Assembly (NCBI GenBank): GCA_036244855.1
Contig: BQKZ01000455.1
Coordinates: forward strand, 1 to 64,000
Direction of reading: 5' to 3'
Source: Temnopleurus reevesii
Taxonomy: Eukaryota; Echinodermata; Echinoidea; Temnopleuroida; Temnopleuridae
DNA: 64,000 bases
Program-made: the position numbers and the translations under genes
Part shown: positions 17,340-36,950 of the stretch, piece by piece
Position numbering within the stretch: the first letter of the stretch is position 1
How the letters are laid out: each line of letters opens with the position of its first letter
The notes under the pieces: model-generated
Seen by the model: the letters and a program-made list of their open reading frames with translations, nothing else
What the model was told of the DNA's origin: nothing
The model's database searches: none

Positions 17340-20300
17340 GTTCGTATGAATGTTTAAATTTACACGAAATGTTCTAAAACATTAATTAATCGTCATGATC
17401 GCTGAATTTTTTACGTGGCCTAACGTGTTTGAGTTGAATGAATGTGAGGAACAGTGCAGTGCAATATGTGCGGGTTTGGGTGCGGCGTCGACCCGTGCTG
17501 TCGGTGTTTCCGTGTAGTATGTGTTTGTGACTTCTTTGTGTGTGAGTCATTTTGAAGTAATAGTTCGGATCTTCCTTTCTGAAGTCTTGAACTTTGAGTT
17601 TGGAGTCGCATTTAAATTTTTGCTCTCCAAATTAATCAATTATCAAGAACCGTCAATCATGACCGGCGTAGTGTTACAAGTGTAGAAATATTTGAATGGA
17701 ACATCTGTGCTTAGCTTTGCCTTCGAATATTCTCAACAATAATATTGAAAAAATTCCGAAATTTTGAAGGCTTTTTTTAAAAGATCATGATTTTAAAACT
17801 CGCGTCCGTCCAGACGACGAACCCGTTCGTACTTGTCTTGATAGACACTTTGGCATTAGGGGCCAGAAATTAGAATGTGCGCGTGTCACGAAAAAATTGT
17901 AAACATCGGGGGCAGAAACTGTCCAAAATATACTCAGGAGTCAGGTAACATCGCCACAAAACATAGTCTAAAAGTGAGTTTAACCAAATTGTATGCACAG
18001 AATAGTGGGTAGTCATTTAAATAAATGTTATTTCATTTCCCCTGCTTAGTTATTTCAGGAAATTCATTGAAAATTTTAATCTATTTTTATGTTAAAAAGT
18101 GCAAACTTGTGTCTACTTAGTACTTTGCAAAGCCAAAGGTTTTTTGGCCGAATCTGGTGCAAAAAATTATCGCTGGTGCACTGCTGCATGCTTCCATAGG
18201 ATTGTTTATGAATTGAATACAGTGCGCAAATCTGGCCCCTATTCTCCAGGTTTGCTGACACTTCCTGATCAGTAATCGCAGTCATGATCAAGTTGAATAA
18301 CAACAGTTAGACAGAAAATCCATTGATTTGGAGTAGTTTTTAAGTTTCTGTCTGACAAGTGACATCAGTTGATGTCACAAACAGTGTTTTAGAATGGTCC
18401 TATATATATGGGGGTTGCGTATCCAGACACTTAACACTATTAAAATTACCTCTTTTGCCTTTGCATGACAAAAACTGTGGATCAAATAACAAAAGTATTG
18501 GGCATTTGTGTCTTCAATTGCAATTTAACGTTTAATACACTCCCATGGCCATGTTGATAAAGATAGACTCCCAAATGAGTGTAGGAATTATTATGTTTTC
18601 ATTGACATTGAGTGAAGAAAGATCAGGGGGTGTTTCATCAAGATTTGTCGCAGCGACAACTTAAGGAGTCATTTTCCGACAGTTCCCATAGCAACTGTCA
18701 GCGATAGTGCATTTCATCCAATCACAATCAAGGAATTTGTTAGCGCTGACTAATTGCCTCTGCGACAAATCTTGATGAAACACCCCCCGGATGAACAAAC
18801 TGAGATTATTTGAGCTAATCCGAGTTCTGAATTTTCGAAACCACAGAAATACAACGATCACTGCTGCTGATGGTGATCTGTGCGATTGGCAACAATGACG
18901 GAGGGTGTGAGGTCATGTCAAACAACTCATCATTTACTTTGTGCATAGGATTTTTAAAAATTGAATGATTGATGTAAGATGTAGAGAAAGGGTTTGACAG
19001 GATTCTTCCAAAAATACATGCAATTTCGATAAACGCATGATATATTCTCAAGCAAGGAAAAAATTTGTTGACTACTCTTGGGGGGGGGGGGGAATAAGAA
19101 AAAGTGAAGTTTTTGTATGAGAGTGAATGGGAAGTTGTACAAAATGACGTCACAGGTTCTGTCAATTTTCCCAATTACATGGATCCCCATCAGCGGCAGG
19201 GCTGTTATGTCTGGGAATTTGAAAATTCACAACTTTTGAACGAATTCTCTGATTTTGCTCGAATTTTCGCAGTTTGTTAATCTGATTTTTCTTCATTCAA
19301 TGAGAATATAAGCCCAGGGGTGGGTTCCCCATTAGTTAGTAGGAAGACAAAGCCCTATAAAGTATTTGTGAATGTCATTCTTTTGTTTCTTTTAATTTTC
19401 TAATCTTATTTTGTTTATTTCTTTTCCTTTATTCCTTTTAGAAACTTTTGGAGAGAGCTCGTGCAAGGCGGGAAAATTTAGCTCGAAAGATGGCAGAATC
19501 AAACATGTCTCCTCGAAAGACTGCAACAAGCACAACAACAACAGCAGCCAGAGTGCCCCTTCGGGAAAATCAGTTGCACAATATCGAACCAAGACGAGGT
19601 ATGTACAACTACAAAGACATTTTATTTAGTTAATTTAGTTTTAAATGTTTGTTTTTCCTTATGAACTATTTTTGCATTTTAATGACAAGATAAGATGCTA
19701 GCTCAACATGTTCATAGCTTTCTGAAGAACACAAGGACTGCACGCATACCAAATTTATCATTCATATCACCATGAGATCGTTCAATTGGTAAGGGTTGAG
19801 CCAAATTTTTATGCCTCCGCCACCGTAAGGTGGTGCCGGAGGCATTATGATTTAGGCTCTCTTCATTTATTTTTAAAAAAATTGTTTTGTCCACCAATTA
19901 CAGTGTCACCAATGAAAGCGAGACGCGAGATGGACATCAAACCAGACACACCGGCAATTCCTTCAGTCAAAAGCAGACTTCAACGCTTGGCTGATCAGAG
20001 ACAGGACTGGGCCGATTCATGTAAATTTATTTTCCTTTCTTTTTATTTTTTTGGGGGTGGTACCCTATTTCAGAGCTGTCAGGCTTCTGTGAAATTGTTT
20101 TTAGTGACTATATATCAGGTTTGCATAAAAACTCAATGTTTGCATTTTATAACAGTCAAAAACTTCCCGTCATTTTCTTTTTATTGGGTCATGCATTGTA
20201 GAGGAAGGTATTAAATGTGAATTGTTACACAAAAGCTATGAATAAAGGCCCCCAAATTATTTTGATGCCCTCAAATGCTAGTTTTTAAATTTTTCAGTGG

Positions 20301-23300
20301 GCCAGTTGGTTGAGGGCATCCAAACATTTTTTTTTTATTTCTGCCTAAGAGCAACCCTACTCAATGTGGCCAAACAGAATGTAAACTTCCATCTCCCCCT
20401 CTCTCCCTGTCTCTCTTTCCCTCTCTCTTTCCCTCTCTCTTTCCCTCTCCCCTCTCTCCCCTCCCCCATCTCCCCCTCTCTGCCCCTTCTCTGCCCACTC
20501 TCCCCCCTCTCCCTCTCACCCCCTCACCCTCTCTCATCCCCTCTCCCTCTCCCAGCCTCTCTTTCCCTCTCCCCCTCTCTGCCCTTTCCCTCTCCCCCTC
20601 CCCTGTCTCCCCCTCCCCTGTCTTCCCCTCTACCCTCTGTCCCCCATTCCCCTCTCTCCCCTCTCTTTCGATCTCTCTCCAGGTGGAGCAGAAGTAGACA
20701 GTCCCAAGAATGTGATCCCTCCAAAGCGACCCAACTTTGATGAGGAGGATGTGGCCCCTGCTCCCAAGGCTCCGATGTCGTGTCGGTCTCGCTTTGCTGC
20801 GTTGGCCGCCAACATCAACAGCTGGGAGGACGATACAGATCACCCTAGACGTGACTTCCACAAAAAGGTTGGCAGTGTTCTTTCCTTTTTCCTTTAGAAT
20901 CGTCTAAGAGCGGACGTAAATTTTACAGAATTCACAGAATTTCAGTCATATTTGCATTGTACACAAGTTAGCGAATTAATGGTCATGGAAATAGCGAAAA
21001 TAAAATACCAGGGAATATTTGAGCTTCTACATTATTCGATGATCTACGCATGTGTAGTGACGATATCATTATTGCCATGTCCCTGCTTTTTTCGAGTACA
21101 TTGACTGTGAGGTTTCTTTGTGTCCAAGCTTCGGGAGACACGTAAATCTGAGTTCTTGTCTTCACAGAGCCAGATTATATCCATGACTTAGACACAGTCT
21201 CCTGCTCTCTATTGCTGGTGTTACTTGCTCAGAATCTTTTATATGAATGCCAGTCTGTGGAATAAAAAGTGGGAGTCAACCCTCTTCCAAGTTAGAACAA
21301 AACTTTGATGAAAACAAATCGTCTGTATTCACAATATATTGAAGATACCAAACATGCATTTGTGAACCATTCATTCATTCTGAATGGAATGGATGTAATC
21401 AAAATTAGATCTACAATAAAAAGACAATGCTTTTTTAATATGCTGTGTTGCATTTTTTTTCTCTCACAGGAAAAACCAGCTGCTAAACAGTGGCAGCCTC
21501 CTAAAACACATGAGCCGGAAGAAGAATCTGCCCCAGTGCCTGCTAAACGCTCTGCCCCTACCACCACCACTACAGCCCCTTCCTCTACGCAACCTTCTCC
21601 TCCCAAGCGTACTAAGTATGACGAGAGTGAGACCTCGTTGCAGCGGGAGCCGAGCGGCAAAGGTAAGGCTCAATTTAAAACTCTTCCATACCGCCGCAGC
21701 TCCTCCACCGGTAGCGTCCACAAAGTCCGATCCATTTCCAAATCACCATCTAAGATACTGCATGCTAGTAGTACCACATCCCATTCATCCTCATTTAAGA
21801 CCGTAATCACCGTAGAATCCAACAAACATAGTCCCGTAAAGAGGCCTAAATCTCCCCTCTCTGGCCGCCTCTTTGTTGCAGTTGGCACCCGGAGGCAGAC
21901 GTCGTCGTCCGGGAGTGATTCGGATGTGCCCAGCACGGAGCAGCCGGTGCCAGCGCCTCGAGCTGCCAAGACGGATTCAACGCCGGCCAGGAGCCCGGTC
22001 AGGATGCAGATCACAACTGCCTCGGTGGTGAAGCGCCCCGCCCCACAGTCCTGCACGCCAGCAACCCCGAAGTCTAAATCGCCCAGGAAGCAGACAAGCA
22101 TTAGGGAATCCCCCAAGAAATCTTTCACGACCATCGCCCCTTCCCCTCTCAAACACAAATCACCCATCAAGACCTCCCCCGTCAAACAGCCCACCAACAG
22201 GGCCTCCCCCGTCAAACAGCCAACCATCAGGGCGTCCCCCGTCAAACAGCCAACTGTCAGGGCTTCCCCCGTCAAACAACCAACAATTATAAAGGCCTCC
22301 CCTCTGAAGCAACCCACCAAGACTAGGAACACCCTGGTCGTCAACAGAGCTCCGACGTCCCAGAAGTTTGCTCAAGCGATGGCGTTGTTGGAGCAGGGCT
22401 GTGGTGGGGGTGGGGCAGCCACCAGGCAGAGTCCCGTCAAGTCTGCGCCTAGAGTGGGGGCCATCGCTCAACGCATCCAGCAGCGATTGAAGGCAGACCA
22501 GAGCAGCTGGCAGAGTAACGCCATCAACAAAAAAGTACAGGTGAGATATATGCTTAAATATTTTAGTATTTTCTCCATATCATAGATACTAGCAAGACGT
22601 GAAATAACCCCCCATTTTGTTACATTCTAAGAATATGTATTTCATTTAATTACAATAAATCTTGATCTCGTATAAGTCAAATAATCACCTAAGTGAGGGT
22701 ATTTTCAAATCCGTTTCTCTGTATATTCTATGGATTTTACCCCTCACAGGTCTAAATTTTCTCTTAGTCAAATATATTTCTTTTATTCCAACAGATTTGA
22801 CTTATGCAAGGTTGACTGTATTTTCTGCGCATTTTTCATATTTGCTTCATATCTTCATCCATTAAAAGATTTGCTTATGGTTATAAAAGTTCTGAAGAAT
22901 AAGGGGGTGTTGCTCAAAAGTTGCAATTGATCGCAAGTTGCTGTTGATAGGAACGCTCCAATCAAAATCATTGTTTCATGCGCGTCTTTTTAAATGCGCA
23001 TACCGTGCGCGAATGGAAATGCGCGTTACAATGTGCAAAGTTGCAGTTGATTTGCAGTTGATTTTGAACAACACCCCCTAAGACTGATAAATCAGATGTT
23101 TTTTGTATCTCATTTGCTTGTTGATATTGCAATGATTGTAATATGCTAGCATATATGCGAGAAGTTGATTACAATTAACAGAAATTTGATGGAGGATTGA
23201 AGGAGTGAAGGTCTGGCCTTTGATGATGACTTTATAACTGAAAATCAGTTTGAGAATACATCTCTGAAACCACATTCATGACTGAAAAGGATTCATGCTT

Positions 23301-26300
23301 TCATTCCATTCCATATCCATCAATGTATCCTGTTCTATCTCCATTTCTACCAATCTTTGCATCTCATACTATATTGTGCCAATTTCCATAGTAAACTAGT
23401 TTATGCCCTTCCAAATGGAGATCTATTATTTTTGTCAGATTCGTCGCTTTTGTCAGATTCATCACTTTCCATTGTACATTCACAAAGCAGCTTTCATATC
23501 TACCTTTTTGATTAGCAAAATTTAGTATTGTACGTCTTCTCATTTTTTTAAAAGCTTACAGTCAAACTGCTATGTGTACATCTGTTTTTCTATAAATGAG
23601 GGGCCAGTTTGACATTTTGGTGTCCCTTTTACAAAATGAGCTCACGGCTTTTTCATGGCCCGGGCCCCCAAGGGCTTGATGACCCTACAAAAATGGAATG
23701 TCCTAAGTCAGATATTACATCCATGATACGTGAACATCTTCCAAGCTGAAGGAGTCATGAAGATGTATGGCATAAAAATGTAACACCAAAGTATCAAGAA
23801 CTGGCGCCCTTATTTATAGAAACATCCAAGTTCACTAGACCAAAATGTAACAATCCAGCTTCTCGTGATATTATTCTGGAACTATGTACCTCTGGAATAA
23901 CAATCTGTGACAGATTTCTTGTATTGGCCAACTTTAACCGTTTTTTGGTCTCTCTATTCATAAAATTGTCTCAACGTGATTAGGAGGAGAGACAGAAGGA
24001 GATGGCGCTCATCAAAGCACGTTGGGAAGGAGGATCTGGAACTGGAAACCATGGACCAAAGGAAGAGGTTTGTCTGAACTCTCTTTTTCTTTTCTTCCCC
24101 TTTCACCCCTACCCCAAGTTGGATCAAATTTTTGTAAATAGCGCTTGAATTTTGATAGGAAGTAGTTCGCAGTGATCATATTTGGATCACAATGTAAAGG
24201 AAAAGTTGTCTCGACCCCCAAAACAATCAAAGTTAATGAAAGTAGTGCATAATTTTATTCTACGTGTACTTTTCCACGGTCACTAAAACTCAAGAAATGC
24301 CACATGTAACCAGGCATGACATTGACAGGGAAGTCAATTCCCTGATCCCTGCTCACCAATTTGCAAGTTTACATTTTCCTTCTGAATCATTTGATGCATA
24401 TAACTATTCTTCAATGGGTAGGAGCATTCTGGTCAGTTTTTGTAAGAACTTTTCCAGAAAGTACCAAAACCAATTTATTATATTTAAACATTTGTAATTT
24501 CCATGTAGATCAATTTAAGATCTGCCCCAAGAGAGGAGCCTGTCGAAGAGAAAGAAGAGATGTCACAAGAAACAGATGTAGATACAGAGGAAGAGGAGAT
24601 GTCTAATTCTGTGAACATATATTTACCTGACATTTCATTCAAACATTTTTAATCTCCATGTAGAAGAACACAAGATCTGCCCAAAGAGAGGAGCCTGTAG
24701 AAGAGAAAGAGGAGCTGCCTCAAGAAACAGATATTGAGACAGAGGAAGAAGAGATGGATGCAGAGTCTAATGCTGATGCAGATGGTGAGTTGATTTTTGT
24801 ATCCTGAATTTGTTTCCCCGATTTGATGTCAAGTGTACTAAAATCCCGTTACTTAGTTCATCTAAATACCCAGTTGGTATGAGTGTAGTGTACTGAGGTG
24901 TGATGTCATAACGATTATGGTAAGTGGTTCTAAACTGTTTCAGAAGTACAGGGTTCCAGTGATCACAACAGTCACTATGTTAAACAATAAGAGTCCTGTC
25001 ACTGCTAATTGTCTGGCAAAAGCATCTGTTATGCTAAAACAAAGGGCAATTACCTCATAGCTTCTGTACTCTATACAAACCATAATGCGAAAATGCAGTG
25101 TCGTACTCTTCAAAATGCTGTACTGGCTTGCCAAGCTGCATGTGAAAGAGGCTTACAATGATAGTAATGAGAGGAAACTTGCAGTGTGGGAGAAAGGATA
25201 GTGATGAAAGTCTTTTTCTCTCGCTAAAATGGACACATGAACCAGGAGAATCAAATATTCTGTATTCATATATTTTTCTGACCAATGTGAAACTGATGGT
25301 TCAATATCAAGGGATGTTTGATATGAGTTGCTTTCAACTTATTTGGCACTTGAAACAACGAATCACTGTTGATCTGGCAGTACCCAGGAGCTGTCCGGCC
25401 CCACAATTAATTGGACCAAATTAGAATATTAGGGTTGATATTTCCAAACATTATTCATTTATTTTGCTTTTTTTTATCTTTCTATTTGTTCCATGCACAT
25501 ATACAGTTAGTGCATCTACCGCTGAGGATGATTACATGACGGAAGAAGATGAGATCGTGCCTACACACAACCAACAGGAGATGGCGCAAACAGGCATCGT
25601 ATCCATTACCATGGAGAGATCCAGCGCTCCAACTGATGATTGGCTTGATGATGTGGACGAGAAGGTAAGAGTTTTTACATAAAAGTTTGCTTTATGTTCA
25701 CTGACCTGAGCAACCTTTTTTAAAATGTGAATGGTCCTGGAAAAGATATATTATTATATGAAGCCTTTTAGTCGTGGTCGTTTTTTATAGCAAAAGCATC
25801 ATACAATATTCCATCGCATATAATTCTATTTTTTTCTTGCACTAATTGCATCTTGGACACTTTTTTTAAGTGGAGTTGGCGCCATACAAAGTGTATATAT
25901 CATTCATGATTTTTTTCGTCATTCTAAAACTGTTGACATATAATTTTTATTTTTCATTAATGCTACAAATTCCTATGGCAATTACTTTCATTCCTACTTT
26001 TTTTCCTGTCCAAAAGGTTGGAACGTTAGATAGTTTGTATAATCACTGCATGAATTACACCACTATCACTTCTGTGTGAGTTGATGTTGGCAGAGATATG
26101 ATTAATGAGAGAGCAAAAAAAGCTTTTTTAACTTTATTACTTCGTTCATGCATTATGCGGCTTTCAATATCCGGTTAGTCAATATGTGTCTACACTGGGT
26201 AATATTATGAATGTTATATAATTTTCCTTTCAGCCAAATGAAGCAGCCGATGAGAGTGAAGTGAACATCAGCGATGTCCTTGGTGACATTGATGAGCTGA

Positions 26301-26793
26301 TTGTTGAGGCTGAGCAAGCTATGAAGGATGAGGAGAAGGCCAAGGCAGAAAGTTTGAAGAAAGATGTGATGTCACCTGTCAAAGCTTCTAAATCCAACGC
26401 AGATCTATCTGGATGGGACTACAATATTGATAATGTACGCCTTCATAAATCCTTACTCAATTACTTTATTGATATTATACTCCTGAATTTGTTCTCCTAT
26501 TAAAGAAAGGAAAGGAAACCTAGTCCTACGTAATCCCCAATGACATATGAGGCTCGTCGCGACAAAAGGGCCCTTAAGCTGTTTACGCGTACGCGGTAAA
26601 ACTCTGCGCGGTAGCATGACGTCACAATAAGCTGGACAGGAGCGTTGGAAAAGCCTAGGTTTTATACAAGGCTTTATGCTAAATAAATTCATTCATCTTG
26701 AATACCTTAGATGACCGTGGAGTGATTTTAAACACACTTTAGACAGTTAGGCCATCAAATTAGCCTTAGAGACCGGGAAATAATGAAGTGAGT

Positions 26794-26828
<35 letters not shown>

Positions 26829-27806
26829 GGGGGTGGGGGGTCGAATGAACCTTCTTCAGAATCACATAATTTCGCGTCCCTATTCTGTAATTCATGACTG
26901 TTCAAAATTTGCGCAAAAAAATAAAATATTGAAAGTTCAATAACAACAAATTTAACACCAATGACGGTTCCAAATAAAAAGATTGAAAGCTCCTTCTCGC
27001 ATATTTTCTTTCATATATCAGAATTTCCTCATTTTGCTTTCCTCTCAGGGTTTTCCCCCTATATCTAAACTCGTAGTTATCATATCACCATAATGTAAAG
27101 AACATAACAAACTTTTTAATGTTCAGTTACGAAAAAATGTTTAGTGTTACCGATTTACTCACTATCATCAAAATAGTTCCCATATCTCTCGTGACATCGT
27201 TTTCCCAAATATGCATTGAAAATCTTTACACATTTTTAGTTAATTTGCAGAGAACTTTAATATTCTTTTCAAGATTGTTTTTCTTCAAATAATGTTTTCC
27301 CAGTTCGATGAATATAAAACTGTTTATCAAAATTTAAAGATTTGTAAAGATTTGAAAGACGAGTTCATTTGTCAACAAACAAATACGCATACCATTATCG
27401 TATTAAAAGAAGAGTCTACTGAAAACAAATTCTTTAATTATCAGGAGTTTATGATTAGCTGTCCGATTTTCTCAACCCTTTTTTATTCTGTTCATTTGAT
27501 TTTTCTGCTCCTGTTGAAGACATAATATTTTAAGGCAGACTCTTCTTTTGAGAAGGCAAACAACTTGTTGGCTTCACACATTTGTGCAATTTGTTTCAAA
27601 GTTACGAGGATAAAAACTGGGCGAGAACATGATTTTTAAGTATCTTATTTTGGTATTGCTTTATTTGCTACAAAGATTTCTAAATATTTATTTTTCTAGT
27701 ACTTTATTCGGTTTAATTATGGAAACCTCAAATCACTCTCGACATCACCGCTTTTTTTTTGCATTAAGTTCGCGGACTATAGGAAAGTATCGAAGCCTCT
27801 GCATCC

Positions 27807-27857
<51 letters not shown>

Positions 27858-30800
27858 CCTTTCTCCATGCATGAAGAGCTGGAGAGCTCATTTTAACGGA
27901 TACAGTTCGATGCTGAGAAATATTATCATTCGGAGTTGGGATCAAAAATATTTTGTAATTCTCTTCCATAAACTTCCTGACCCTATACAAAGACTGGAAT
28001 TGATGATGGTAATGACATGAACGACAATAATGCAGATATCAATAATGCAATAATATCTGCGGGAAAAATTGGGATTATGAAATGTAGGTTTTGAAACAAA
28101 GACGATATCAAAATCATGACCGTTTTATCATGCTGAAAAAGTTACTGTTTAGAGTGAGGGCAAATCTAACAATTCTCATTTTTGGAACACTTAAATGATT
28201 TCCACTCCTCAACTCTTTCTCAAATATTTTTCTCTGAAATTTAACTCTCCTGGCACAAAAGTTGATTCGAATACAGTTTACACGGTTGTGAGTATGATTA
28301 TAAATAACATAAAGAAGCAGCGTGTGTACCGTTACAGAATTCTGATTTCTACCGTAATGTTCTGAGATTAAGCATTACGCCTGGGTACTAAACCTAGCTC
28401 TTTCCATTCTCCTCTTCAGCTCATTGTGACGTCACGCTACCGCGCAGTGTTTTACCGCGTACGCGTAAACAGCTTAAGGGCCCTTTTGTCGCGACGAGCC
28501 TCATATTCAATTTCATTTCTTTTATTGAACTTTGAAAGGAAATTCATATAAATTATAATTGACTTTGTAGATTGTTTATACCACAAGTTATTTTTATCCT
28601 CCCCCAAAATCGTTTTCCTTCATGAAATACTTGATGCATTTTCAGCAGAAAAATATAATGATCACTTTCTTTTCCTCTGAAGTAGTTCTTGAAGAAATAT
28701 GACAAATTTAATTTCAATGGAAAAGGGGTAGATATAATGGAATGACCTATGGTGGAAATTCAGCATGTGTAAACAAAATTTTACAGTTATTACAACATTT
28801 CCTATCTCTAGATGGAGCCAATCTATGCCAACATCGCTGAAGTAACAGCCTCCTCCTCTTCATCCTCCGATGAGAGTAACCCCATCCCACCTCCACGATC
28901 ACGACGCAGGAGCTCCAGCGTCGGTTCCATCGATTCCTGCATCTCTACAGCCTCCTCCCTGGCCCCGATCAGCCTGGAGAGTTACCGGTCCCAACAACAG
29001 CAGAAGACGCTCAGCCCCACCACCATCACCCACCGGACCGTCACCCGCGAGACCGCATCCCGGACCGTCGTCAGGCAACCCTCCTCCAGGCCGAGGTCAT
29101 CATCCACCACGTCATCGGCGTCTTCGACGACATCAAGGAACGATACGGGTAGGCGTCCCCAGCAGCAGCCTCAGGGCGGACAGCAGAAAAGGCTGGTCGC
29201 TAAGAAGATGAGCACCAAGGAGAAGATTCAGATGCTGATGGAGGAAGTGTCTGCTCAGCAGAGCATCATCCATCAGACCAGCCAAGCTCTAGAGCTGATC
29301 GCTGCCACTGAGGAGTACCATGGCACCAAGGAGGAGATTGAAGCTGAGAGACTACTTGTTGTTACAAGTAAGCTTTAATCATCTTGTTCCACAACATCTC
29401 TTATAAATCGGGAATACTCTGAAATCTTGGATTTTGAATAAAGATAGTAATTAAAGCTTGTACAATAGTTCTCTAACTCACTGGAAGGTGTAGGATTATT
29501 GCAATATCTAGTACATGTTTATGAAAAATGTGAAATAACTCTGAGCGTGTTTATAGCTTTTATTTTAAAATTGTCATCTTGATATAAGGATAACATACAT
29601 ACCAAATTTATCATAAAGGCCACATGAGAATAGATACACTATCGGATTGAAAATAATGGATGCTCTTGGGTGGTTAGTGAGTAATAGGAGGGGCAGTTTG
29701 GGGCGATTTAGTTGCTTTAAATGAGTCAAAGATGTTTTTAAATTTCATGCGTTGATTCCCCAAAATACATGCTGCTTGGAAACTTTCAGCAATTTCTGAG
29801 TGCATTATTCAGTAAGAAGATTGATTTCGTATTATTAACAATCAACATCTGTAAATGTTCATATCCTGCATGAAAAGAGGACACATAATAATGAGTTCGA
29901 CGCTGCTCATGTCTGTTAATTATATTTGCAATTTTTGTTTCAGCTCAACGTCGCCAGGCATGTCTCTCTGAGATCCAGTACCTGAAGAACCCAGTGGCCC
30001 CGCCCAAGGCTGTGTTGACGGAGGATGGCGAGGAGATATTTCCCTGCAGAGGATCAGTCACCATCAAGGATATCAGACTGCCCCTGAAGACGCAGTACCT
30101 CATGGCTCTAGACTCTGGTAGAGGTAGGTACACCCAGACACTAAGATGTGTAGGGGGGGGGGGGATGGAATGGGTAAAAGATCTTTCCCTGCAGAGGATC
30201 AGTCACCATCAAGGATATCAGACTACCTCTCAAAACACAGTACCTCATGGCTCTAGACTCTGGTAGAGTTAAGTACACCCAGACACTATGATGTCGGGAG
30301 GGGGGAGGCAGGGGGTAGGAGATCTACCCCTGCAGGGGATCAGTAATGATCAAGGATATTAGACTACCCCTCAAGACGCAGTGCTTCATGGCTCTTGACT
30401 CCGGCAGAGGTAGGTAAATCCAGATTCAAATTATTTGGGCGATGCGGGAGAGGGTAGGGGTAGGAGATCTCCCCTTGCAGGGGACCAGTAACCAAGGGGA
30501 TAAGAATCCCCAACAAGACACAATACCTCATGGCTCTAGACTCTGGTAGAGGTAGGGTAGATGCAGGTACTATGATTGGGGCAGGGCAGGGAGAGGCGTG
30601 GGGGGGGGGGGAAGAGGGTGCTTTGGTGACGGAGGATGGCGAGGAGATCTTCCCTTGCAGAGGATCAGTAACCATCAAGGATATCAGACTACCCCTCAAG
30701 ACACAGTACCTCATAGCTCCTTTGACACCCATTGTTATTTAGAACACAATTACACATCCATCTGTCTCCTAAGAAACCCTTTTGTTCATGGATAGCATCA

Positions 30801-33800
30801 ATGAAGAGAGAAAAATGCACTGGAATCAATCATTCGTAATATCCCCCTATGAACCATAAAAAGACTGAAAAAGTTTGGAGTCGGATTTTAGGTTATATAC
30901 TGATAGAGAAAAATAAACTTTTTTCACCCTTTCTGCTCATGATTGAATCTTGAATCTGTTTCTGAAACACTGATAGAAAGGAGAAGCGAATGACATCAGA
31001 ATTTCAACAATTTGTATTTACATATATTTTCATCTAATTCAAACTTTTCTTTTTCTCTCTCCATCTATAGATCAAGCTCATCATAGTTTCTTTGTGATTG
31101 TGAGATGTCAGGAGCATGTGATTGCAACTCAGATCCTGTCCACAAGGGAGATCACAGGAGACTGCCTTCACTTCACCAACCTAGTGTGCTTGTAAGTCAT
31201 GCTTATCATATAGATAGTAAATGGTTTATCATGCATTATATTGGATAAAGCACGACTAGTAACTACATTATCCCAAGTGCCGGTGGTTTGTATTACCGAG
31301 GACATAGGCCGAGGTTATTAGACCTGCATGAGGGATGATTTAGTTATTTTTGGAGTTCATATAGTCCGGTAATAGTGTGTCAATAGAGCATGCATTAATC
31401 ATTATAGTAAATAGGCCCCTGTTTCCGATTATATCACCAAGAATTACACCACAGGCAAAAATTGCCTGCGTCACTATGAAATCAGCGTTTGCTTGAACAT
31501 TCCTATTGTTGTGTCATAGTGCACAAGTAGCACAACAAGTAATATACATACCATATTTACTTTCATTTCTTGTTGTATGATACCCTCTCCCTTGCATAAA
31601 TTTTCACTTGATTCAATATCTTAAATCAAACAAAGGAACAAGATGTGTGAAATTCCATTGTCTTTTAGCCCTGATCTTACAAGAGGTTTAGTGTACTAAA
31701 GAGGAAATTGTGCTGGTCTATGAGTTTCAACTTTTCACAATCTTGTCTGAATTTTGCAGGAATGATCTAGGAAGTGATTTCACCATTGAGCTACTGGTAT
31801 ATGAGATGAGAGGTAGATGTGCTACCATGGATGCAGTCCACAGCAAGAAGGCTGCTAACTCCAAGCATGGCTGGAGCCTCACACCAAAGAAATTCAAGAC
31901 TGCATCTACATTTAGGGTATGACAATGAGAAACCAGGGTTCCCTCTCTACCTGAAAACATAAAAAATGAGTTTCACGTGTATCAGTCAGGGGAAAGTCAG
32001 GGAATTTGATTTTTAAAACCCCTCAAATCAGGGGAAATCATTGAATTTTGACAAAGTGTCCATTTGGAAATTGAGGATGTGTCAAAATGTGTTAAAATGG
32101 AGGAATTATGGTGATAGAATTTGGAAATTTCATTGAGGAATGACAGGCCATTTCTGGGTAGATTTTGTTCAAACAAACCAGGAACATACTCTAATCTCTC
32201 ATTGAAAAATTGTATAATATTAATAATATTGCTGTAGCTCAGAAAGTGATTAAAAATCTGAAGTTCCACCTCTCCTAAAACTGGTCTACATGTTCAATGT
32301 CCACAAAATTTGAATTGTGAGAAATTCAGCAGACAACATTTTTTTTCAAGATATTTCACCTTTTCTCTTTGCCCTACAGCAAGGAGGCCGTAATCTGAAT
32401 TCTCCAGGACCGTCTGGCCACAGCACTGTTAGACAGAATAGCTTTGCTATGGTGGGCTCAGCCCGGCTAACACTAGCTAGCTGTCAACTCAAGAAATGCA
32501 CTCTTACAAAGGTTAGTCGTGGCTCATATGCACTTTATTATTCATTTAGGGGTGTATTTCTTGTATGATCTGCTCAGTTTTGAGCTCAAGAAATGCACCC
32601 TCACAAGAATTGGGCGTTCCATAGAGTGATAGAATAAGCGATAACCATTTTGGTATTCAGTATTGAGGGGGCAGAACAGCTTTGCTATGGTGGGCTCAGC
32701 ACGCCTCACTCTAGCTAGCTGTCAACTCAAGAAATGCACTCTTACAAAGGTCAGTTTGATATCACAGATATCATTTAGGCTTTATACGGAATAGGGGAAC
32801 AGGAGGAAAATGGTCATTGTTGTCAGGTTTTTCGTCAGATAATCATATGTAAAGATTTCAAAACTATATCAATTTACATGTAACCTGGGCTGTGTTTCAT
32901 AAAGCTATTTGTAGAGGCAAGCATGATTCTACAGATGACTGGTGACCCTTTCCCGCACTCGGTAAACATTATGTCACTGAGTAAGCACTTGAGAAGGGTC
33001 ACCAGTCGTGTGTAGTTCTATGAAGAGCTTCATGAAACGCAACCCATATCAAATGATGCATCCCATCTTCCCAAAATGAATATAAATAATGGTGACAGCT
33101 GAACAAAGTGGGAGCAATCATGAAAACAATAACCGTACTCTCAGCCTTTCACATATAATGAAAGCCTCAAATTCATATGAAACTGCACCTCGGACACATT
33201 CCAGAACATTTTTGCATCTCTGAATGAAGCGCAGCAATTTGATATGAATATTCAATAAATAATAGCTCCAGTTTATCTTTGGTATCTCATAAACATTTCA
33301 TAACATCATTATGTCACTCTCTTTGTGCAGGTTCCTTTCCTATCACCGCTAGAGGGTGCCATTCACATGACAATGTCTTGTCACACAGACAGCCAGACCC
33401 ACGCTGAGGGATTCCTAACGATGTTTGATGACTGCAGCGGGCTTGGTATGTGGCATAGGAGATGGTGCGTCCTACATGGTGGAAACCTGTCGTTCTGGAA
33501 ATATCCGGGAGATGAGAAACGCAAGGTAAGATTGACATGGTGATTCTTGAAATCCTATATTCATCGGCCTTAATTTGGGTGGGGGGGGGGCATGTAGAGG
33601 GTTTTTTGACGATGTTTGACGACTGCAGCTGACTGGGTATGTATCATAGGCGTTTGTGTGTCTTACACTGTGGGAACCTATCGTTCGGGAAGTATCCAGG
33701 GAACGAGAAACGCAAAGTAAGAATATATTTCTTTATGTCATTTTAATTCATTTTTGTCTCGCCTGCGTAGCAGAATCGAGACATAGGCGCCGCTTTTTCC

Positions 33801-36773
33801 GACGGCGACNGTTGAACATTTGAAAGATTTGAAAACTATAATTTCTTTTAACCAGATCACATTTCACATCTTCCCAAAGCCATCAATGAATTTCAAGTCC
33901 ATTGATATGGGACCAGGGTCCCATATCCTAAAGCTTTTCAATCGATCATACGATTGATATCAATAGCAAGTCGATGGGAAATGTACAAAAATTTGCAGTT
34001 GATTGCAAACTTGTTTTATGTTACAGGCCCCAGGGGTTCATTTTGCTCCTAAATTTGCACCCAGCTATTAACAAAGATGACAACCGCTCTGCAATATGCA
34101 TGAGGTCAAAATTAAAATGTGAATAATGCTAGAGCTGAGAATTAGCAAGAGCAAATGTGACAATGACCATATTCTCAGCCATTCACTTGTAATGAAAGCC
34201 TTTTCTGGAATGCTTTGTGTCTAATATGAATATTCCCTAAATAATGGGCTCAGTATGTGACATCTTTGGTATCTCATTAACACTTCATAACATCATTATG
34301 TCACTTTCTTTGCGCAGGTTCCCTTCCTATCACCGCTAGAAGGCGCCATTCACATGACGATGTCGTGCCACACGGACAGCCAGACCCATGCCGAGGGTTT
34401 CCTGACAATGTTTGACGACTGCAGTGGACTGGGCATGTGGCATAGGAGGTGGTGTGTCTTACACGGTGGAAACTTATCGTTCTGGAAGTATCCTGGAGAC
34501 GAGAAACGCAAGGTAAGAATGACATGGTGATTCATTAAATATAATTGCTATGGGAAGGCAGAAGGGAACCCATGCCAAGGGTTTTATGACAATGTTTGAT
34601 GACTGCAGTGGACTGGGTATGTGGCATTGGAGATGGTGTCTCCTACATGCTGGAAACTTATCATTCTGGAAGTATCCCGGAGACGAGACAAACAAAGTAA
34701 GAATATTATGGTGATTCATTTAAGCACTTTGGGGAGGCAGGAGGGAAGGCCATGCAGAGTGTTCTGTGAAGATATTTGATGACTGCAGCGGACTGGGTGT
34801 GTGGCATAGGAGATGGTGTCTTACATAGTGGAAACATATCATTGTGGAAGTATCCCGGTGACGATAAATGCAAGGTAAAAATATTATGGTGATTCATGGA
34901 GTTTTATACCATTTGCCTTGTATTGGGAAGGCAGGAGGGAACCCACGCTGATGGTTTTCTGAGGATCGATGATTGTAGTGGGCTGGGTGTGTGGCTAAAA
35001 CCTATGGTTAAAACCTATCATTCTGAAAATATCTCTGGTGCAACAACGGCAAAGTGAGAGTAACATTGTGATTCATGTAATTCACCATAATCTTTATCAT
35101 TATTGATTTGGGGATGAGGGATGGAGGAATTGCTGACAATCTTTTATGACTGCAGCCGACTGGGTATATGGCATAGGAGATCATGGTGCGTCCTACATGG
35201 TGAAAACCTATCATTCTGGAAAATATCCTGGGGATGAGAAACGCAAGGTTAGAATAAGATTGTGAAGTTCACCACAAACTTATCGTTTTTCCAGTGTAAA
35301 AGCTATCTCGTATCCACTGCACTAGACAAGCAGACCCGTTTTTGACCAGTATCATCATTTTTCCAGTGTTAGAATTGTACATAGGTCTGCAAAATAATAA
35401 CATGTTTGAATCTTATTCTCCCACCAGCCACCCATCGGCACCATCGACTTGAAGGCGTGCATCACCAGAGAAGTGAAGATGATCTCTCGTATTCACTGCG
35501 CAAGACCAAACACCTTTGAGCTCCAAACAAGTAGACCGGCCAGCAAGTCAGACAGGGACACACTCGTCTCAAAACACTCCAACTCATACACAGTCACCAA
35601 GTAAGTCCTTTTCTTGAATTATATCAAAATTGCCAGTGTTTTAACCATTGGAGTATACTTGCTGCCTTGAGCATTTCAGAGAGCAATGAAGGGAGTAAGA
35701 GTCGATCAATTTCGATCAGTCCATAATGATATAAACACTCCAACTCATTGGGGGTGTTGTTCAAAAGTTGTTCAAAACTACAAATCAGTTGCAAATTGTA
35801 ACCCGTATTTTCATTTGCGCATGATATGCACTTCTAACAAGATGTTCATGAAACAATGGTATTGATTGGCGGGGTCTGATCAACTGCAACTTGCGATCAA
35901 TTGCAACTTTTTAACACCACCCCCATACACCGTCACCAAGTAAGTCCTTCACTGATGATATAAAAGCATTTGTGCCAATCTAAATTTGTAATTTTATTAT
36001 ATATTTTTTTCAGAGGGAGTATGTTTTATTCAGGCATCAGTAAATATTTGGAAAATTGTTATGGCAATGATACCATTGGTCACATCATTTATACGTCCCC
36101 TCAAGCCAATGCTAGCTGGAAAACAACAAGAAACTATTTATAAGCTCAAGAGGTATGCCATTGTGTGTAGTATAAAGAATTCAGAACATTCACAACCCAG
36201 AACCTGGGGGACATTGCATTAAAATGTACCTATATTTTCATTAACCTGTTTTTTTCCCATTTCTTTGTATCTCTTCTTTCCCTTATGCATCTTTCTCTCT
36301 TACTCTCCTCACGCTCTATCATTCACATTCACTCTCACTTTCTTCTTCTTTCTTTATATTCTTCCTTGTTACACACACACACACACGCAATCTCCCTCTC
36401 TTCCTCTTTCCCCTTCTCTCTCTCTTTCTCTCCTTTTCTATCTCTCTCTCTCCTTTCTCTTTCTCTCCTTTTTCTCTCCTTTTTCTCTCCTTTTTCTCTC
36501 CTTTTTCTCTCTCTATTTTTCTCTCTCTCTTTCTCCATCTCTCTCTCTCTCTCTCTTTCCTACTTCTTTCCTTTCACTATCCTACCCTCTCTCCCTCCTA
36601 CCTCTTTCCATCTCCTCCATCTCCCCATCCTCCACCCATCCCCTTCCTCAAACAGACATCTCCTTTCAGCAGACACCAAGGAAGACAGAGTAGAATGGAC
36701 GACGTCCCTCAACAAGACGCTATTGGAGCTCAGGTTGTGGTGTAAGGATGCCATAAGACCAAGCCACGAATGA
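17322..36773 (+). CDS. ANLN: Anillin, actin-binding cytokinesis scaffold (17 coding exons)
   Basis: Coding exons: 17322-17339, 19442-19598, 19904-20020, 20683-20867, 21470-22540, 23984-24067, 24664-24784, 25507-25664, 26234-26434, 28812-29367, 29944-30123, 31071-31191, 31760-31916, 32380-32511, 33331-33525 (or 34318-34512), 35428-35600, 36656-36773. All joins keep frame and give about 1247 aa; human anillin is about 1124. Anillin links RhoA, F-actin, myosin II and septins at the cleavage furrow. Visible features are the N-terminal MDPLTE and KLLERARARRENLARKMAE, the conserved SVKSRLQRLADQRQDW and LAANINSWEDD motifs, a Ser/Pro-rich disordered region with seven SPxK sites (about 383-441), acidic stretches (about 545-700), an anillin homology domain (about 840-1100) and a PH domain (about 1115-1240). 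Exon duplication is rampant (see findings). Splice choice at the duplicated exons and at the internal intron-like segment 21663-21881 is uncertain. Confidence 0.96.
18626..18788. mobile_element. MITE, GGGGGTGTTTCATCAAGA family
   Basis: The left arm GGGGGTGTTTCATCAAGATT pairs with the right arm AATCTTGATGAAACACCCCC, and pairing continues inward (TGTCGCAGCGACAA against TCTGCGACA). It lies in anillin intron 1. A second copy, nested in another element, is at 41076-41232. Confidence 0.88.
18800..19334. mobile_element. Diverged relative of the 15581-16163 element
   Basis: The right half (GAAAATTCACAACTTTTGAA, TTTCGCAGTTTGTTAATCTG, ATTTTTCTTCATT) closely follows the right half of the element at 15581-16163. 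The end reads AGGGGTGGGTTCCCCATTAG. The left end is not well defined. It lies in anillin intron 1. Confidence 0.65.
19442..19598 (+). CDS. ANLN: Anillin exon 2
   Basis: Residues 7-58. Begins KLLERARARRENLARKMAE directly after a TTCCTTTTAG acceptor; this is the signature N-terminal helix of anillins. Donor GTATGT, phase 1. Confidence 0.95.
19904..20020 (+). CDS. ANLN: Anillin exon 3
   Basis: Residues 59-97, including SVKSRLQRLADQRQDW, matching the vertebrate SSVKTRMQKLAEQRRRW motif. Acceptor CCAATTACAG, donor GTAAAT. In the preceding intron, 19800-19860 has a short 'GCCTCCGCCACCGTAAGGTGG' type repeat. Confidence 0.94.
20386..20680. repeat. Polypyrimidine (CTCTCC)n tract before anillin exon 4
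   Basis: Nearly pure C/T for about 300 bp, running directly into the splice acceptor of exon 4. The long open frames on both strands here are compositional. Confidence 0.92.
20683..20867 (+). CDS. ANLN: Anillin exon 4
   Basis: Residues 98-159. Contains SRFAALAANINSWEDDTDH, matching the conserved RLANLAATICSWEDD motif in the myosin/actin-binding half. Acceptor CTCTCTCCAG lies at the end of a long pyrimidine tract; the donor is GTTGGC, a weak match. Confidence 0.94.
21470..22540 (+). CDS. ANLN: Anillin exon 5, large disordered exon
   Basis: Residues 160-516, rich in Ser, Pro, Lys and Thr, with no folded domain. A run of 30 bp repeats (22165-22320) encodes SPVKQPT-type decamers. The C-terminal end (KFAQAMALLEQG, AIAQRIQQRLK) resembles the helical segment before the conserved ERQKE motif. 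Acceptor CTCTCACAG, donor GTGAGA. Nucleotides 21663-21881 start GTAAGG, end TTTGTTGCAG, are 219 bp long (a multiple of three) and contain no in-frame stop. They may therefore be an optional intron (exitron); removal would delete 73 residues and rejoin G-K-V-G-T. Confidence 0.92.
22655..22811. mobile_element. MITE remnant in anillin intron 5
   Basis: Related to the element at 6929-7103: TCTCGTATAAGTCAAATAAT on the left, AGATTTGACTTATGCAAGGTTGACTGTA on the right. The arms are imperfect. Confidence 0.5.
22903..23078. mobile_element. Harbinger-like MITE, GGGGGTGTTG family
   Basis: GGGGGTGTTGCTCAAAAGTT on the left and TGAACAACACCCCC on the right form the inverted termini, with TTGCAATTGATCGCAAGTTG subterminal. 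TAA flanks both ends (22900-22902 and 23079-23081), a 3 bp target-site duplication. Other copies are at 35749, 39109, 44685, 46062, 46793, 60193 and 60549. Confidence 0.9.
23984..24067 (+). CDS. ANLN: Anillin exon 6
   Basis: Residues 517-544, starting EERQKEMALIKARWEGG; vertebrate anillins have QERQKELACLRGRFDKG here. Acceptor CGTGATTAG, donor GTTTGT, phase 0 at both ends. Confidence 0.9.
24509..24610 (+). CDS. ANLN: Anillin candidate alternative exon, duplicate of exon 7
   Basis: Starts after a CCATGTAG acceptor nearly identical to that of exon 7 (24664-24784). It encodes the same REEPVEEKEE...QETD.DTEEEEM acidic motif with about 85% base identity. The 3' end is altered: where exon 7 has GATG|GTGAGT, this copy has TCT|GTGAAC, a weak donor. 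If that donor is used the exon is 102 bp and in frame, adding 34 residues before exon 7. It may equally be a decaying duplicate. Confidence 0.45.
24664..24784 (+). CDS. ANLN: Anillin exon 7, acidic
   Basis: Residues 545-584, strongly acidic: REEPVEEKEELPQETDIETE then EEEMDAESNADAD. Acceptor CTCCATGTAG, donor GTGAGT, phase 1. Confidence 0.85.
25507..25664 (+). CDS. ANLN: Anillin exon 8
   Basis: Residues 585-637, including DDYMTEEDEIVPTHNQQEM and SAPTDDWLDDVDEK. Acidic and low complexity. Acceptor CATATACAG, donor GTAAGA. Confidence 0.88.
26234..26434 (+). CDS. ANLN: Anillin exon 9
   Basis: Residues 638-704, including NISDVLGDIDELIVEAEQAM; compare [20 protein letters not shown] in vertebrates. 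Acceptor TTTCCTTTCAG, donor GTACGC, a weaker match. The following intron carries a 1956 bp transposon. Confidence 0.9.
26548..28503. mobile_element. 1956 bp DNA transposon in anillin intron 9, long terminal inverted repeats
   Basis: TGAGGCTCGTCGCGACAAAA at the left end is the exact inverted complement of the right end. The inverted repeat continues for about 87 bp with three or so mismatches, through GGGCCCTTAAGCTGTTTACG, CGTACGCGGTAAAAC and TGACGTCAC. TA flanks both sides (26546-26547, 28504-28505). The interior is AT-rich with a (CT)n microsatellite at 27808-27855 and a (GA)n/G-rich tract at 26797-26840, and I see no transposase. It is non-autonomous; superfamily unknown. Near-identical termini suggest recent insertion or selection on the ends. 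Confidence 0.9.
28812..29367 (+). CDS. ANLN: Anillin exon 10, start of the anillin homology domain
   Basis: Residues 705-889. A Ser/Arg-rich first part (RSRRRSSSVGSIDS) and SLESYRSQQQQK are followed by STKEKIQMLMEEVSAQQSII and HQTSQALELIAATEE, which match the AHD opening [20 protein letters not shown] of vertebrates. Acceptor TATCTCTAG, donor GTAAGC, phase 1. Confidence 0.95.
29944..30123 (+). CDS. ANLN: Anillin exon 11, AHD
   Basis: Residues 890-949. Contains FPCRGSVTIKDIRLPLKTQY, matching [20 protein letters not shown]. Acceptor TTGTTTCAG, donor GTAGGT, phase 1 at both ends. Four partial copies follow within 600 bp. Confidence 0.95.
30178..30720 (+). pseudogene. ANLN: Four partial tandem copies of anillin exon 11
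   Basis: Copies at 30178-30268, 30320-30409, 30463-30551 and 30625-30720 repeat the second half of exon 11 (TGCAGAGGATCAGT, CAAGGATATCAGACTACCC, CTCATGGCTCTAGACTC). Copies 3 and 4 keep the GAG|GTAGG donor. Copy 2 has GAG|TTAAGT and copy 5 is cut after CTCATAGCTCC. None has the exon's 5' half with its acceptor, so they are probably not spliced. Copy 3 has GTAATGATC and copy 4 an internal deletion. Confidence 0.88.
31071..31191 (+). CDS. ANLN: Anillin exon 12, AHD (C2-like part)
   Basis: Residues 950-989. HHSFFVIVRCQEHVIATQIL then GDCLHFTNLVCL, corresponding to [20 protein letters not shown] and GDALTFTTTFTL. Acceptor CCATCTATAG, donor GTAAGT, phase 2. Confidence 0.93.
31760..31916 (+). CDS. 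ANLN: Anillin exon 13, AHD
   Basis: Residues 990-1042, NDLGSDFTIELLVYEMRGR then SKKAANSKHGWSLTPKKFK. Matches DVSNDFEINIEVYSLVQKK and the TPKRLLT segment. Acceptor AATTTTGCAG, donor GTATGA. Confidence 0.93.
32380..32511 (+). CDS. ANLN: Anillin exon 14
   Basis: Residues 1043-1086, including VRQNSFAMVGSARLTLASCQ, matching [20 protein letters not shown]. Acceptor TTTGCCCTACAG, donor GTTAGT, phase 0 at both ends. Partial copies follow at 32583-32607 and 32675-32749. Confidence 0.93.
32583..32749 (+). pseudogene. ANLN: Two partial copies of anillin exon 14
   Basis: 32675-32749 repeats the last 25 codons of exon 14 without amino-acid change (NSFAMVGSARLTLASCQLKK...), starts after GAGGGGGCAG and ends at AAAG|GTCAGT. 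It could therefore in principle be spliced in frame. A second remnant, CTCAAGAAATGCACCCTCACAAG, lies at 32583-32607. The lack of a pyrimidine-rich acceptor makes use of the first copy unlikely. Confidence 0.75.
32887..33047. mobile_element. MITE, GTTTCATAAAGCT family
   Basis: GGGCTGTGTTTCATAAAGCT pairs with AGAGCTTCATGAAACGCAAC. Inside, GACTGGTGACCCTT pairs with AAGGGTCACCAGTC. A second copy is at 40458-40611. It lies in anillin intron 14. Confidence 0.82.
33331..33525 (+). CDS. ANLN: Anillin exon 15a, first PH-domain exon (copy A)
   Basis: Residues 1087-1151, 65 codons, phase 0 at both ends. VPFLSPLEGAIHMTMSCH, then GFLTMFDDCSGLGMWHRRWC, VLHGGNLSFWKYPGDEKRK. Matches the VPFLSSLEGHIYLKI and WHRRWCVLSG...YPDDEKRK blocks that end the AHD and begin the PH domain. 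Acceptor CTTTGTGCAG, donor GTAAGA. An equally intact copy is at 34318-34512. Confidence 0.95.
33596..33716 (+). pseudogene. ANLN: Decayed copy of anillin exon 15
   Basis: Begins at GGGTTTTTTGACGATGTTTG and keeps the donor CGCAAA|GTAAGA. It lacks the acceptor and first third of the exon and has an in-frame TGA in the CTGCAGCTGACTGG stretch. Confidence 0.85.
33763..33810. repeat. Dispersed repeat fragment ending at an N
   Basis: Reverse complement of the block at 5560-5622 (CTGCGTAGCAGAATCGAGAC, TAGGCGCCGCTTTTTCCGAC). It stops at a single N at 33810, which may mark a collapsed or joined contig. Confidence 0.7.
33907..34034. mobile_element. Diverged MITE, CTGGGCCCCGTAA family
   Basis: GGGACCAGGGTCCCATATCC on the left, TTTTATGTTACAGGCCCCAG on the right, with TTGATATCAATAGCAAGTC inside. 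Matches the better preserved element at 45446-45598. It lies between the two intact PH exons. Confidence 0.6.
34318..34512 (+). CDS. ANLN: Anillin exon 15b, intact duplicate of the first PH exon (copy B)
   Basis: 195 bp with intact acceptor (CTTTGCGCAG) and donor (GTAAGA). By my count it translates to exactly the same 65 residues as 33331-33525 while differing at 26 nucleotides, all synonymous. Being phase 0-0, it could replace copy A without any protein change. Splicing both together would repeat 65 residues across the AHD/PH junction and probably break the PH fold. About 160 bp of upstream intron is also recognisably shared (CATCATTATGTCACT). Confidence 0.88.
34568..35247 (+). pseudogene. 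ANLN: Four decayed tandem copies of anillin exon 15
   Basis: Copies at 34568-34696, 34745-34874, 34940-35053 and 35125-35247 repeat the 3' two thirds of the exon (GATGACTGCAG, GGCATAGGAGATGG, ATCATTCTGGAA). Each ends near a donor-like site (GTAAGA, GTAAAA, GTGAGA, GTTAGA). The first is open and encodes a variant (FDDCSGLGMWHWRWCLLHAG). The others carry frameshifts or stops. All lack the exon's acceptor. Confidence 0.85.
35428..35600 (+). CDS. ANLN: Anillin exon 16, PH domain
   Basis: Residues 1152-1208, PPIGTIDLKACITREV then IHCARPNTFELQTSRPASK and DRDTLVSKHSNSYTVTK. Matches NPIGRINLANC, CARRNTFELITVRPQ and DRETLVSQ. Acceptor TCCCACCAG, donor GTAAGT. Confidence 0.95.
35733..35949 (+). pseudogene. 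ANLN: Duplicated 3' end of exon 16, split by a MITE
   Basis: AAACACTCCAACTCA (35733-35747) and TACACCGTCACCAAGTAAGT (35926-35945) together repeat the end of exon 16 and its donor. Between them sits a GGGGGTGTTG-family MITE (about 35749-35924). The exon tail was therefore duplicated first and the transposon inserted later. Confidence 0.85.
35749..35924. mobile_element. Harbinger-like MITE inside a duplicated exon tail
   Basis: TGGGGGTGTTGTTCAAAAGT to TTTTTAACACCACCCCC, same family as 22903-23078. It splits the duplicated end of anillin exon 16. Confidence 0.85.
36260..36650. repeat. Polypyrimidine tract before anillin exon 17
   Basis: CT-rich microsatellite with CTCTCTTT and CTCCTTTTT repeats and an (AC)n run near 36370. 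Open frames here are compositional. Confidence 0.9.
36656..36773 (+). CDS. ANLN: Anillin exon 17, end of PH domain and stop codon
   Basis: Residues 1209-1247. HLLSADTKEDRVEWTTSLNK then TLLELRLWCKDAIRPSHE and TGA. Matches [20 protein letters not shown], the C-terminal PH helix. The acceptor CCTCAAACAG follows a 400 bp pyrimidine tract. Confidence 0.95.
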
Positions 36774-36950
36774 AGATCCATTCTCGACAAATAGACTCTT
36801 AGAAAGTGAGATTAAAAAGAAAGAGAGATTAAAAAGAGATAGACCAAAGATGTCACAAAACTTGGGTTATATAACAGATGTTGGTGTGTAGCCTTCATAC
36901 CACTGGTCAAAAGAATACCAATTCTTTTTATAGAAATTCACATTGACTCA

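What the first reader, a model, noticed from the sequence alone, without database searches (positions are those of the whole stretch)
33331..34512. Two intact PH-domain exons in anillin encode the same 65 residues but differ at 26 synonymous sites
Exons 33331-33525 and 34318-34512 both have intact GT-AG sites and are phase 0-0. Aligning codon by codon, I count 26 base differences and no amino-acid change. Zero replacement change at such synonymous divergence means both copies have been kept under strong purifying selection at the protein level. It also makes an allelic or assembly duplicate unlikely, because allelic differences would be far fewer. Known mutually exclusive exon pairs usually diverge in protein; a pair kept identical is unusual. 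The point could be dosage or splice-fidelity backup, or regulation rather than protein diversity.
Basis: partly seen in the sequence, partly recalled or inferred. Interest (0 to 1): 0.88.

Follow-up and report, generated by a model that had tools for sequence, protein, structure and literature searches.

The report
Probably one exon assembled twice
Two copies of one exon in a sea urchin's anillin gene encode the same protein piece, but they lie on either side of an assembly join and are most likely two versions of a single exon, from the two parental chromosomes, laid end to end by mistake.

Summary
In detail: 33331-33525 and 34318-34512 are two 195-bp phase 0-0 exons of a sea-urchin anillin gene, both with good splice sites, 26 differences, all synonymous. 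The reading as a kept tandem pair is probably wrong. A single N at 33810 lies between them. Left of it the sequence stops inside a dispersed repeat; right of it the sequence is colinear with the left side, weakly from its first bases (33811 with 32838), then clearly through A and B. Similar overlaps flank other single Ns (4 of 7; 2 of the 5 not chosen with hindsight), and two overlapping contigs elsewhere differ by 13 synonymous and 0 replacement codons of 45 in one exon. I favour a false haplotypic duplication (0.70): A and B are one exon on two chromosomes, each ordinarily constrained. Against it: divergence far above published urchin heterozygosity and a copy tree mixing the two sides. A true, old tandem pair stays possible (0.23). 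Five decayed partial copies nearby, four of them in one unbroken stretch, look real.

The parts
33331..33525 (+). Exon copy A (end of the C2-like part and start of the PH domain of anillin), left of the N
   Evidence: Translation, AG/GT sites, 4xh3 match; acceptor score 4.0, donor 11.1 (matrix recalled)
34318..34512 (+). Exon copy B, same 65 residues, right of the N
   Evidence: acceptor 4.5, donor 11.1
33810..33810 (.). Single N between the copies, read as a contig join
   Evidence: N positions; repeat cut at it; single Ns flanked by overlapping sequence
33749..33809 (+). Dispersed repeat cut short at the N
   Evidence: 96.7% to 5627-5567 minus, where the repeat goes on with other sequence
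32838..33330 (+). Left-side intron upstream of A, colinear with 33811-34317
   Evidence: Strong for 33242-33330 (80% block), clear for 33126-33167 (85.7%; part of a dispersed repeat), weak for 32838-32887
33811..34317 (+). Right-side start, colinear with 32838-33330; contains a roughly 125-bp high-copy repeat at about 33911-34040
   Evidence: repeat: 40 further matches scored out of 1749 candidates
33591..33716 (+). Partial copy A1 (3' part of the exon with donor), one in-frame stop, left of the N; colinear partner of B1
34568..34696 (+). Partial copy B1, open frame, no good acceptor
34745..34874 (+). Partial copy B2, 2-base gap
34941..35054 (+). Partial copy C, several gaps
35124..35247 (+). 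Partial copy D, 4 gap columns; groups with A in trees
19906..36773 (+). Anillin gene model, 15 exons, 1188 residues, N-terminus not found; each exon listed with AG and GT (last exon with stop)
   Evidence: homologues (Lytechinus variegatus 92% over the C-terminal 429 residues)

Best explanation
A and B are two haplotypic versions of the same single exon. The assembler broke the gene into two contigs in the intron after exon 13 because the two chromosomes differ there; the left contig runs through A and ends inside a repeat, the right contig starts about 970 bp earlier on the other chromosome and runs through B to the gene's end. The scaffolder set them side by side with one N. Shown here: the N, the cut repeat, the colinear homology on the two sides, similar overlaps at other single Ns, and a contig pair with a synonymous-only exon. 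Inferred: that the two sides are alleles and that a single N marks an overlap estimate (the latter convention is recalled, not tested). Both exons are functional, one per chromosome, so ordinary purifying selection explains the unchanged protein.
For: (1) Single N at 33810 exactly between the copies; the repeat left of it is truncated there. (2) Right of the N the best partner of 33811-33910 in 28000-33809 is the expected colinear place 32844-32885 (score 35 against 24-26 elsewhere in the window; 0 of 300 shuffles and 1 of 198 other window segments as good with the strictest scoring, 3-8 of 300 and 4-6 of about 200 with other scorings); left of the N there is no such match (306 of 500 shuffles as good). 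(3) A1 and B1 are in register, so the homology continues through the left contig's end. (4) Overlapping, colinear flanks at other single Ns: C4964:8711, L008:3394, window 60472 (98% over 252 bp); 4 of 7 single Ns held, counting 33810; by one criterion 4 of 5 evaluable against 10 of 104 control points, 3 of 4 without 33810, p 0.005. (5) C903 and C4964 carry one gene with blocks at 99.8% over 3926 bp next to blocks at 73-91%; exon 2 there has 13 synonymous, 0 replacement codons of 45, 4-fold 8 of 21, not different from A/B 13 of 26 (p 0.56). (6) All 18 genome matches of the anillin C-terminal 411 residues lie on this contig, so no separate second version is assembled.
Against: Silent divergence (4-fold 50%) and barely alignable distal intron far exceed the heterozygosity printed for urchins (about 3% L. 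variegatus, 5% S. purpuratus, 3.5-4.4% Arbacia lixula; passages of PMC11310861). The copy tree groups D (right of the N) with A (left) in 940 of 1000 NJ bootstraps, 764 with copy C included, and A1 (left) with B (right) in the ML tree: simplest if both lineages lay on one chromosome; of the 4 columns that split A,D from the rest, 2 are CpG transitions. The overlap at 33811-33853 is short and weak, and the uniform test for a hit starting within 50 bp of the N was negative at 33810 itself. Of the five single Ns not chosen with hindsight only 2 showed an overlap. C903/C4964 were not proved to be alleles, and their other four exons together have only 6 synonymous and 1 replacement codons in 223. 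No reads were seen.
Confidence: 0.7

Rival explanations
1. A true, old tandem exon pair. An exon block of about 1 kb was duplicated; both copies stayed spliceable, each mRNA takes one of them, and selection against defective anillin keeps each protein sequence unchanged. Copies that lose their acceptor decay (A1, B1, B2, C, D).
For: 0 replacement against 26 synonymous changes, more extreme than 9 of the 12 partial copies of this gene pooled (69 synonymous to 45 replacement codons, p 2e-5; copies C, the E13 fragment and the E6 copy were left out of that pool); equal splice sites; the 56 bases before the acceptor differ at only 4 (read from the alignment); in the ML tree the branches between the A and B groups hold third-position change with almost none at positions 1 and 2, and all 15 informative columns are third positions (13) or Leu first positions (2); real in-register partial copies exist in unbroken sequence.
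Against: Homology begins at the N and not elsewhere; the repeat is cut at the N; single Ns elsewhere show overlaps. 13 of 13 homologues aligned, five of them echinoid, show the exon peptide once. No docking-site signal above shuffles.
Confidence: 0.23
2. The array is real but polymorphic: some chromosomes carry A-type, some B-type exons after unequal exchange within the array, and the assembly shows a mixture of two array alleles joined at the N.
For: Explains both the join and the crossed grouping of D with A and A1 with B; mosaic identity between C903 and C4964.
Against: Needs extra exchanges; nothing here phases the copies.
Confidence: 0.05
3. Only one copy is used; the other is a recently silenced duplicate.
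For: Silencing within the last tenth of the divergence would still leave no replacement change in about 1 of 120 cases.
Against: Both have intact acceptors, donors and frames; neutral for a fifth of the time already gives P 6e-5.
Confidence: 0.02

Closest known systems
False heterotype (haplotypic) duplication in genome assemblies (PMC9516828, passages read)
   Same: Two diverged versions of one region side by side in one scaffold, separated by an assembly gap, whole exons falsely doubled within a gene
   Different: The divergence here is larger than the heterozygosities in that paper's table (0.22-0.95%); read depth and k-mers could not be tested
Mutually exclusive tandem exons (PMC9741552, PMC7954323, PMC5740500; passages read)
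   Same: Two neighbouring homologous in-frame exons of equal length and phase, covering part of a folded domain
   Different: Protein identity 100%, where PMC7954323 gives a mean of 67% and a small second peak near 90%; use of both copies not shown
Birth-and-death exon arrays such as Dscam (PMC3236188, passages read)
   Same: Array of intact copies and gains or losses of copies
   Different: Here at most two copies are complete, the rest are 3' fragments with donors and no good acceptor

Membership tests
Anillin (ANLN) | C-terminal anillin-homology region followed by PH domain, homologous to ANLN proteins | tested here: met
   1188-residue model; 1461 homologues at E <= 0.001, best 120 listed, top ones named anillin in sea urchins, each with PF08174 and PF00169; exon itself PF00169 E 3.9e-6
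Mutually exclusive tandem exon pair | Two homologous neighbouring exons of equal length and phase with working splice sites | tested here: met
   as the assembly stands
Mutually exclusive tandem exon pair | Both copies lie on one chromosome | tested here: inconclusive
   Single-N join between them and colinear overlap against crossed grouping of copies
Mutually exclusive tandem exon pair | One and only one copy in each mRNA | not testable with these tools
   No RNA reads held; either, both or neither copy would keep the frame (195 = 3 x 65)
False haplotypic duplication | Copies separated by an assembly gap or join | tested here: met
   N at 33810, repeat truncated at it
False haplotypic duplication | Second copy colinear with the first from the join onward, no homology beyond it | tested here: met
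   the part next to the join is weak
False haplotypic duplication | Haploid read depth, heterozygous k-mers, discordant pairs | not testable with these tools
   No reads held
False haplotypic duplication | Divergence within the range of alleles of the same animal | tested here: inconclusive
   Above printed urchin heterozygosity; matched by one exon of a contig pair that may be allelic

The most novel reading that the evidence does not exclude
A sea-urchin anillin gene carries a real, old pair of interchangeable exons, diverged to half of all 4-fold sites yet unchanged in 65 residues, with conserved acceptor-side introns: a duplicated exon kept for regulation, redundancy or because any spliceable copy is exposed to selection, not for protein diversity. 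A second bold reading, if the two sides are alleles, is that this animal holds haplotype blocks whose silent sites differ by 40-50%, next to blocks that differ by 0.2%.
Probability: 0.23. Interest if true: 0.65.

Novelty: not a real feature. Interest (0 to 1): 0.15.

Why it matters
Synonymous-only exon pairs are just what a false haplotypic duplication of a conserved exon looks like, so such pairs should be checked for single-N joins before they are read as kept duplicates. If the pair were real, it would be a case of exon duplication kept without protein change, which would allow regulation to be studied apart from protein diversity.

Tried and rejected
Recent whole-copy gene conversion: rejected as the reason for protein identity, since it would erase synonymous differences too; a short conversion tract over the 56 acceptor-side bases is not excluded. 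Docking and selector RNA pairing for mutually exclusive splicing: best energies -30.0 and -28.2, shuffled -24.1 to -29.4 (3 shuffles each), no signal. Separate haplotig or paralogue of anillin: none, 18 of 18 matches on C455; a second PF08174 gene lies on C84. I first argued that the divergence was too large for alleles and that the A/B tree proved two live lineages on one chromosome; the N and the C903/C4964 comparison made me give up the first and weaken the second. Literature: searches (the last returned 0 papers) listed no paper, by title or start of abstract, on an exon pair with identical protein in anillin; other papers may exist outside the held library.

A puzzle left open: partial copies that cannot be exons also differ mostly at synonymous sites (E10 copy 2 6:0, E13 copy 5:0; pooled 69:45 for 9 of 12 copies; with the three left out, C 8:7, E13 fragment 2:0, E6 copy 1:10, the pool would be 80:62). 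Fragments of the other haplotype merged without an N would explain some; not tested.

Full report
Observation. The two exons are as described: 195 bp each, phase 0-0, AG/GT bordered, 65 identical residues, 26 base differences all synonymous. They belong to an anillin gene of a sea urchin: a 15-exon, 1188-residue model is closest to Lytechinus variegatus (92%), L. pictus (91%) and Strongylocentrotus purpuratus (89%) over the C-terminal 429 residues. The exon covers the end of the C2-like part and the start of the PH domain (PDB 4xh3 and 2y7b; PF00169). NG86 gives 41.4 synonymous sites, pS 0.63, dS about 1.36 by JC; 13 of 26 4-fold sites differ; 11 of 26 differences are CpG transitions. If one copy had been neutral throughout, about 48 replacement changes would be expected. 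Both have equal donors (11.1) and similar acceptors (4.0 and 4.5) by a recalled matrix.

Surroundings. Five partial copies of the exon's 3' part with its donor follow: A1 after A; B1, B2, C and D after B. None has a good acceptor (best 0.3, against 4.0 and 4.5). Other exons of the gene also have partial tandem copies: exon 10 (four), exon 13 (one and a fragment), exon 6 (one), and the last exon with following sequence. Such copies recur in this genome: a VPS13-like exon on C1, a second PF08174 gene on C84 and a chaperonin gene on C1774. In 200 kb of random stretches (3 of 20 read wholly N) the C1 case was the only one near the top of a list of 138 local pairs ranked by codon periodicity. Partial copies are thus ordinary here.

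The join. The window has three N runs; one is a single N at 33810, between A1 and B. The 61 bases left of it are a dispersed repeat, 96.7% identical to 5627-5567 on the minus strand; there the repeat continues, here it is cut at the N. Right of the N, B and its flanks are colinear with A and its flanks: 34224-34706 with 33242-33726 at 80%, 34160-34201 with 33126-33167 at 86%. The first bases right of the N also fit: the best partner of 33811-33910 in 28000-33809 is 32844-32885, the expected place, score 35 against 24 and 26 in two other parts of the window; with five scoring schemes 0 to 8 of 300 shuffles and 1 of 198 to 6 of 197 other window segments did as well. The stretch between is interrupted by a repeat at about 33911-34040 (40 further copies scored among 1749 candidates). 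Left of the N (33727-33809) there is no such homology. So homology starts at the N.

Is that typical of single Ns? I held seven: four in the random stretches, two in the window, one in C4964. Four had colinear overlap across the N (C4964:8711, L008:3394, 33810, 60472), three had none. C4964 was looked at because of its match to C903, and 33810 is the case at issue, so two of five are free of hindsight. By one uniform criterion (a hit of at least 100 bp and 75%) it is 4 of 5 evaluable sites against 10 of 104 control points, p 0.0008, and 3 of 4 without 33810, p 0.005. By a second criterion (a hit of 40 bp starting within 50 bp of the N) it is 3 of 5 against 7 of 104, p 0.005, and 33810 itself is negative. 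At 60472, in the same window, the overlap is 252 bp at 98%, which is plainly an unmerged overlap.

Can two haplotypes differ that much? Published urchin heterozygosity is about 3-5% (passages of PMC11310861), far below A against B. Yet C903 and C4964 carry the same chaperonin gene with 99.8% identity over 3926 bp and neighbouring blocks at 73-91%. Over five exons they differ by 19 synonymous and 1 replacement codons of 268; 13 of the 19 fall in exon 2 (45 codons, 4-fold 8 of 21), with introns beside it at 71-80%. A/B (13 of 26) does not differ from that exon (p 0.56). Whether C903 and C4964 are alleles or recent paralogues is not proved. In C4964 the single N at 8711 is followed by 1.5 kb that repeats, in order and diverged, what lies left of it, until 10260-10360 matches the left contig's last 101 bases at 98%: this is how an unmerged second haplotype would look.

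Evidence that speaks for a real pair. Trees of the copies (exon positions 76-195) group D, right of the N, with A, left of it (940 of 1000 NJ bootstraps; 764 with copy C), and place A1, left, with B, right, in the ML tree; all 15 informative columns are third positions or Leu first positions. Taken at face value both lineages lived side by side on one chromosome while under coding constraint. But only four columns split A,D from the rest, two of them CpG transitions, and the distances among A, B, A1 and B1 fit all three pairings about equally (sums 43, 44, 42 differences). The acceptor side (4 differences in 56 bases, read) is much better kept than silent sites, as expected for working splice sites under either reading.

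Conclusion. The copies are both sound, constrained exons, but most likely one per chromosome. I give the false haplotypic duplication 0.70, a true old tandem pair 0.23, a mixed array polymorphism 0.05. Protein identity needs no special force: the same peptide differs by 2-3 of 65 residues from five other echinoid proteins including Diadema. False exon duplications of this kind, separated by assembly gaps, are described for vertebrate assemblies (PMC9516828, passages).

Noticed in passing
window 29944-30740: Exon 10 of anillin is followed by four partial tandem copies (30179, 30317, 30462, 30620); copy 2 differs by 6 synonymous and 0 replacement codons though its donor GT is lost.
   Followed up: partly
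window 32380-32749: Exon 13 is followed by a 78-base partial copy with 5 synonymous and 0 replacement codons, a good donor (8.5) and only a weak acceptor (1.4).
   Followed up: partly
window 60118-60725: Single N at 60472 flanked by a 252-base overlap at 98% identity: an unmerged contig overlap.
   Followed up: yes
G000 C903:107701-117471 and C4964:3421-15428 (L031-L048): One chaperonin gene in two contigs with mosaic identity, 99.8% over 3.9 kb beside blocks at 73-91%, and an exon with 13 synonymous and 0 replacement differences.
   Followed up: partly
L008 1331-4869: Single N at 3394 with colinear diverged copies on both sides (91%, 78%, 88%), starting at the first base right of the N.
   Followed up: partly
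L030 (C1774:56900-59100), L007 3416-3713, L027 to L029 (C84): Partial tandem exon copies in a chaperonin gene, a VPS13-like gene and a second PF08174 gene; many differ mainly at third codon positions.
   Followed up: partly
window 24510-24756: Exon 6 has an upstream partial copy with acceptor but mostly replacement differences (1 synonymous, 10 replacement codons, one stop).
   Followed up: no
window 36727-37157: The last exon's end and following sequence are tandemly repeated at 78% identity.
   Followed up: no
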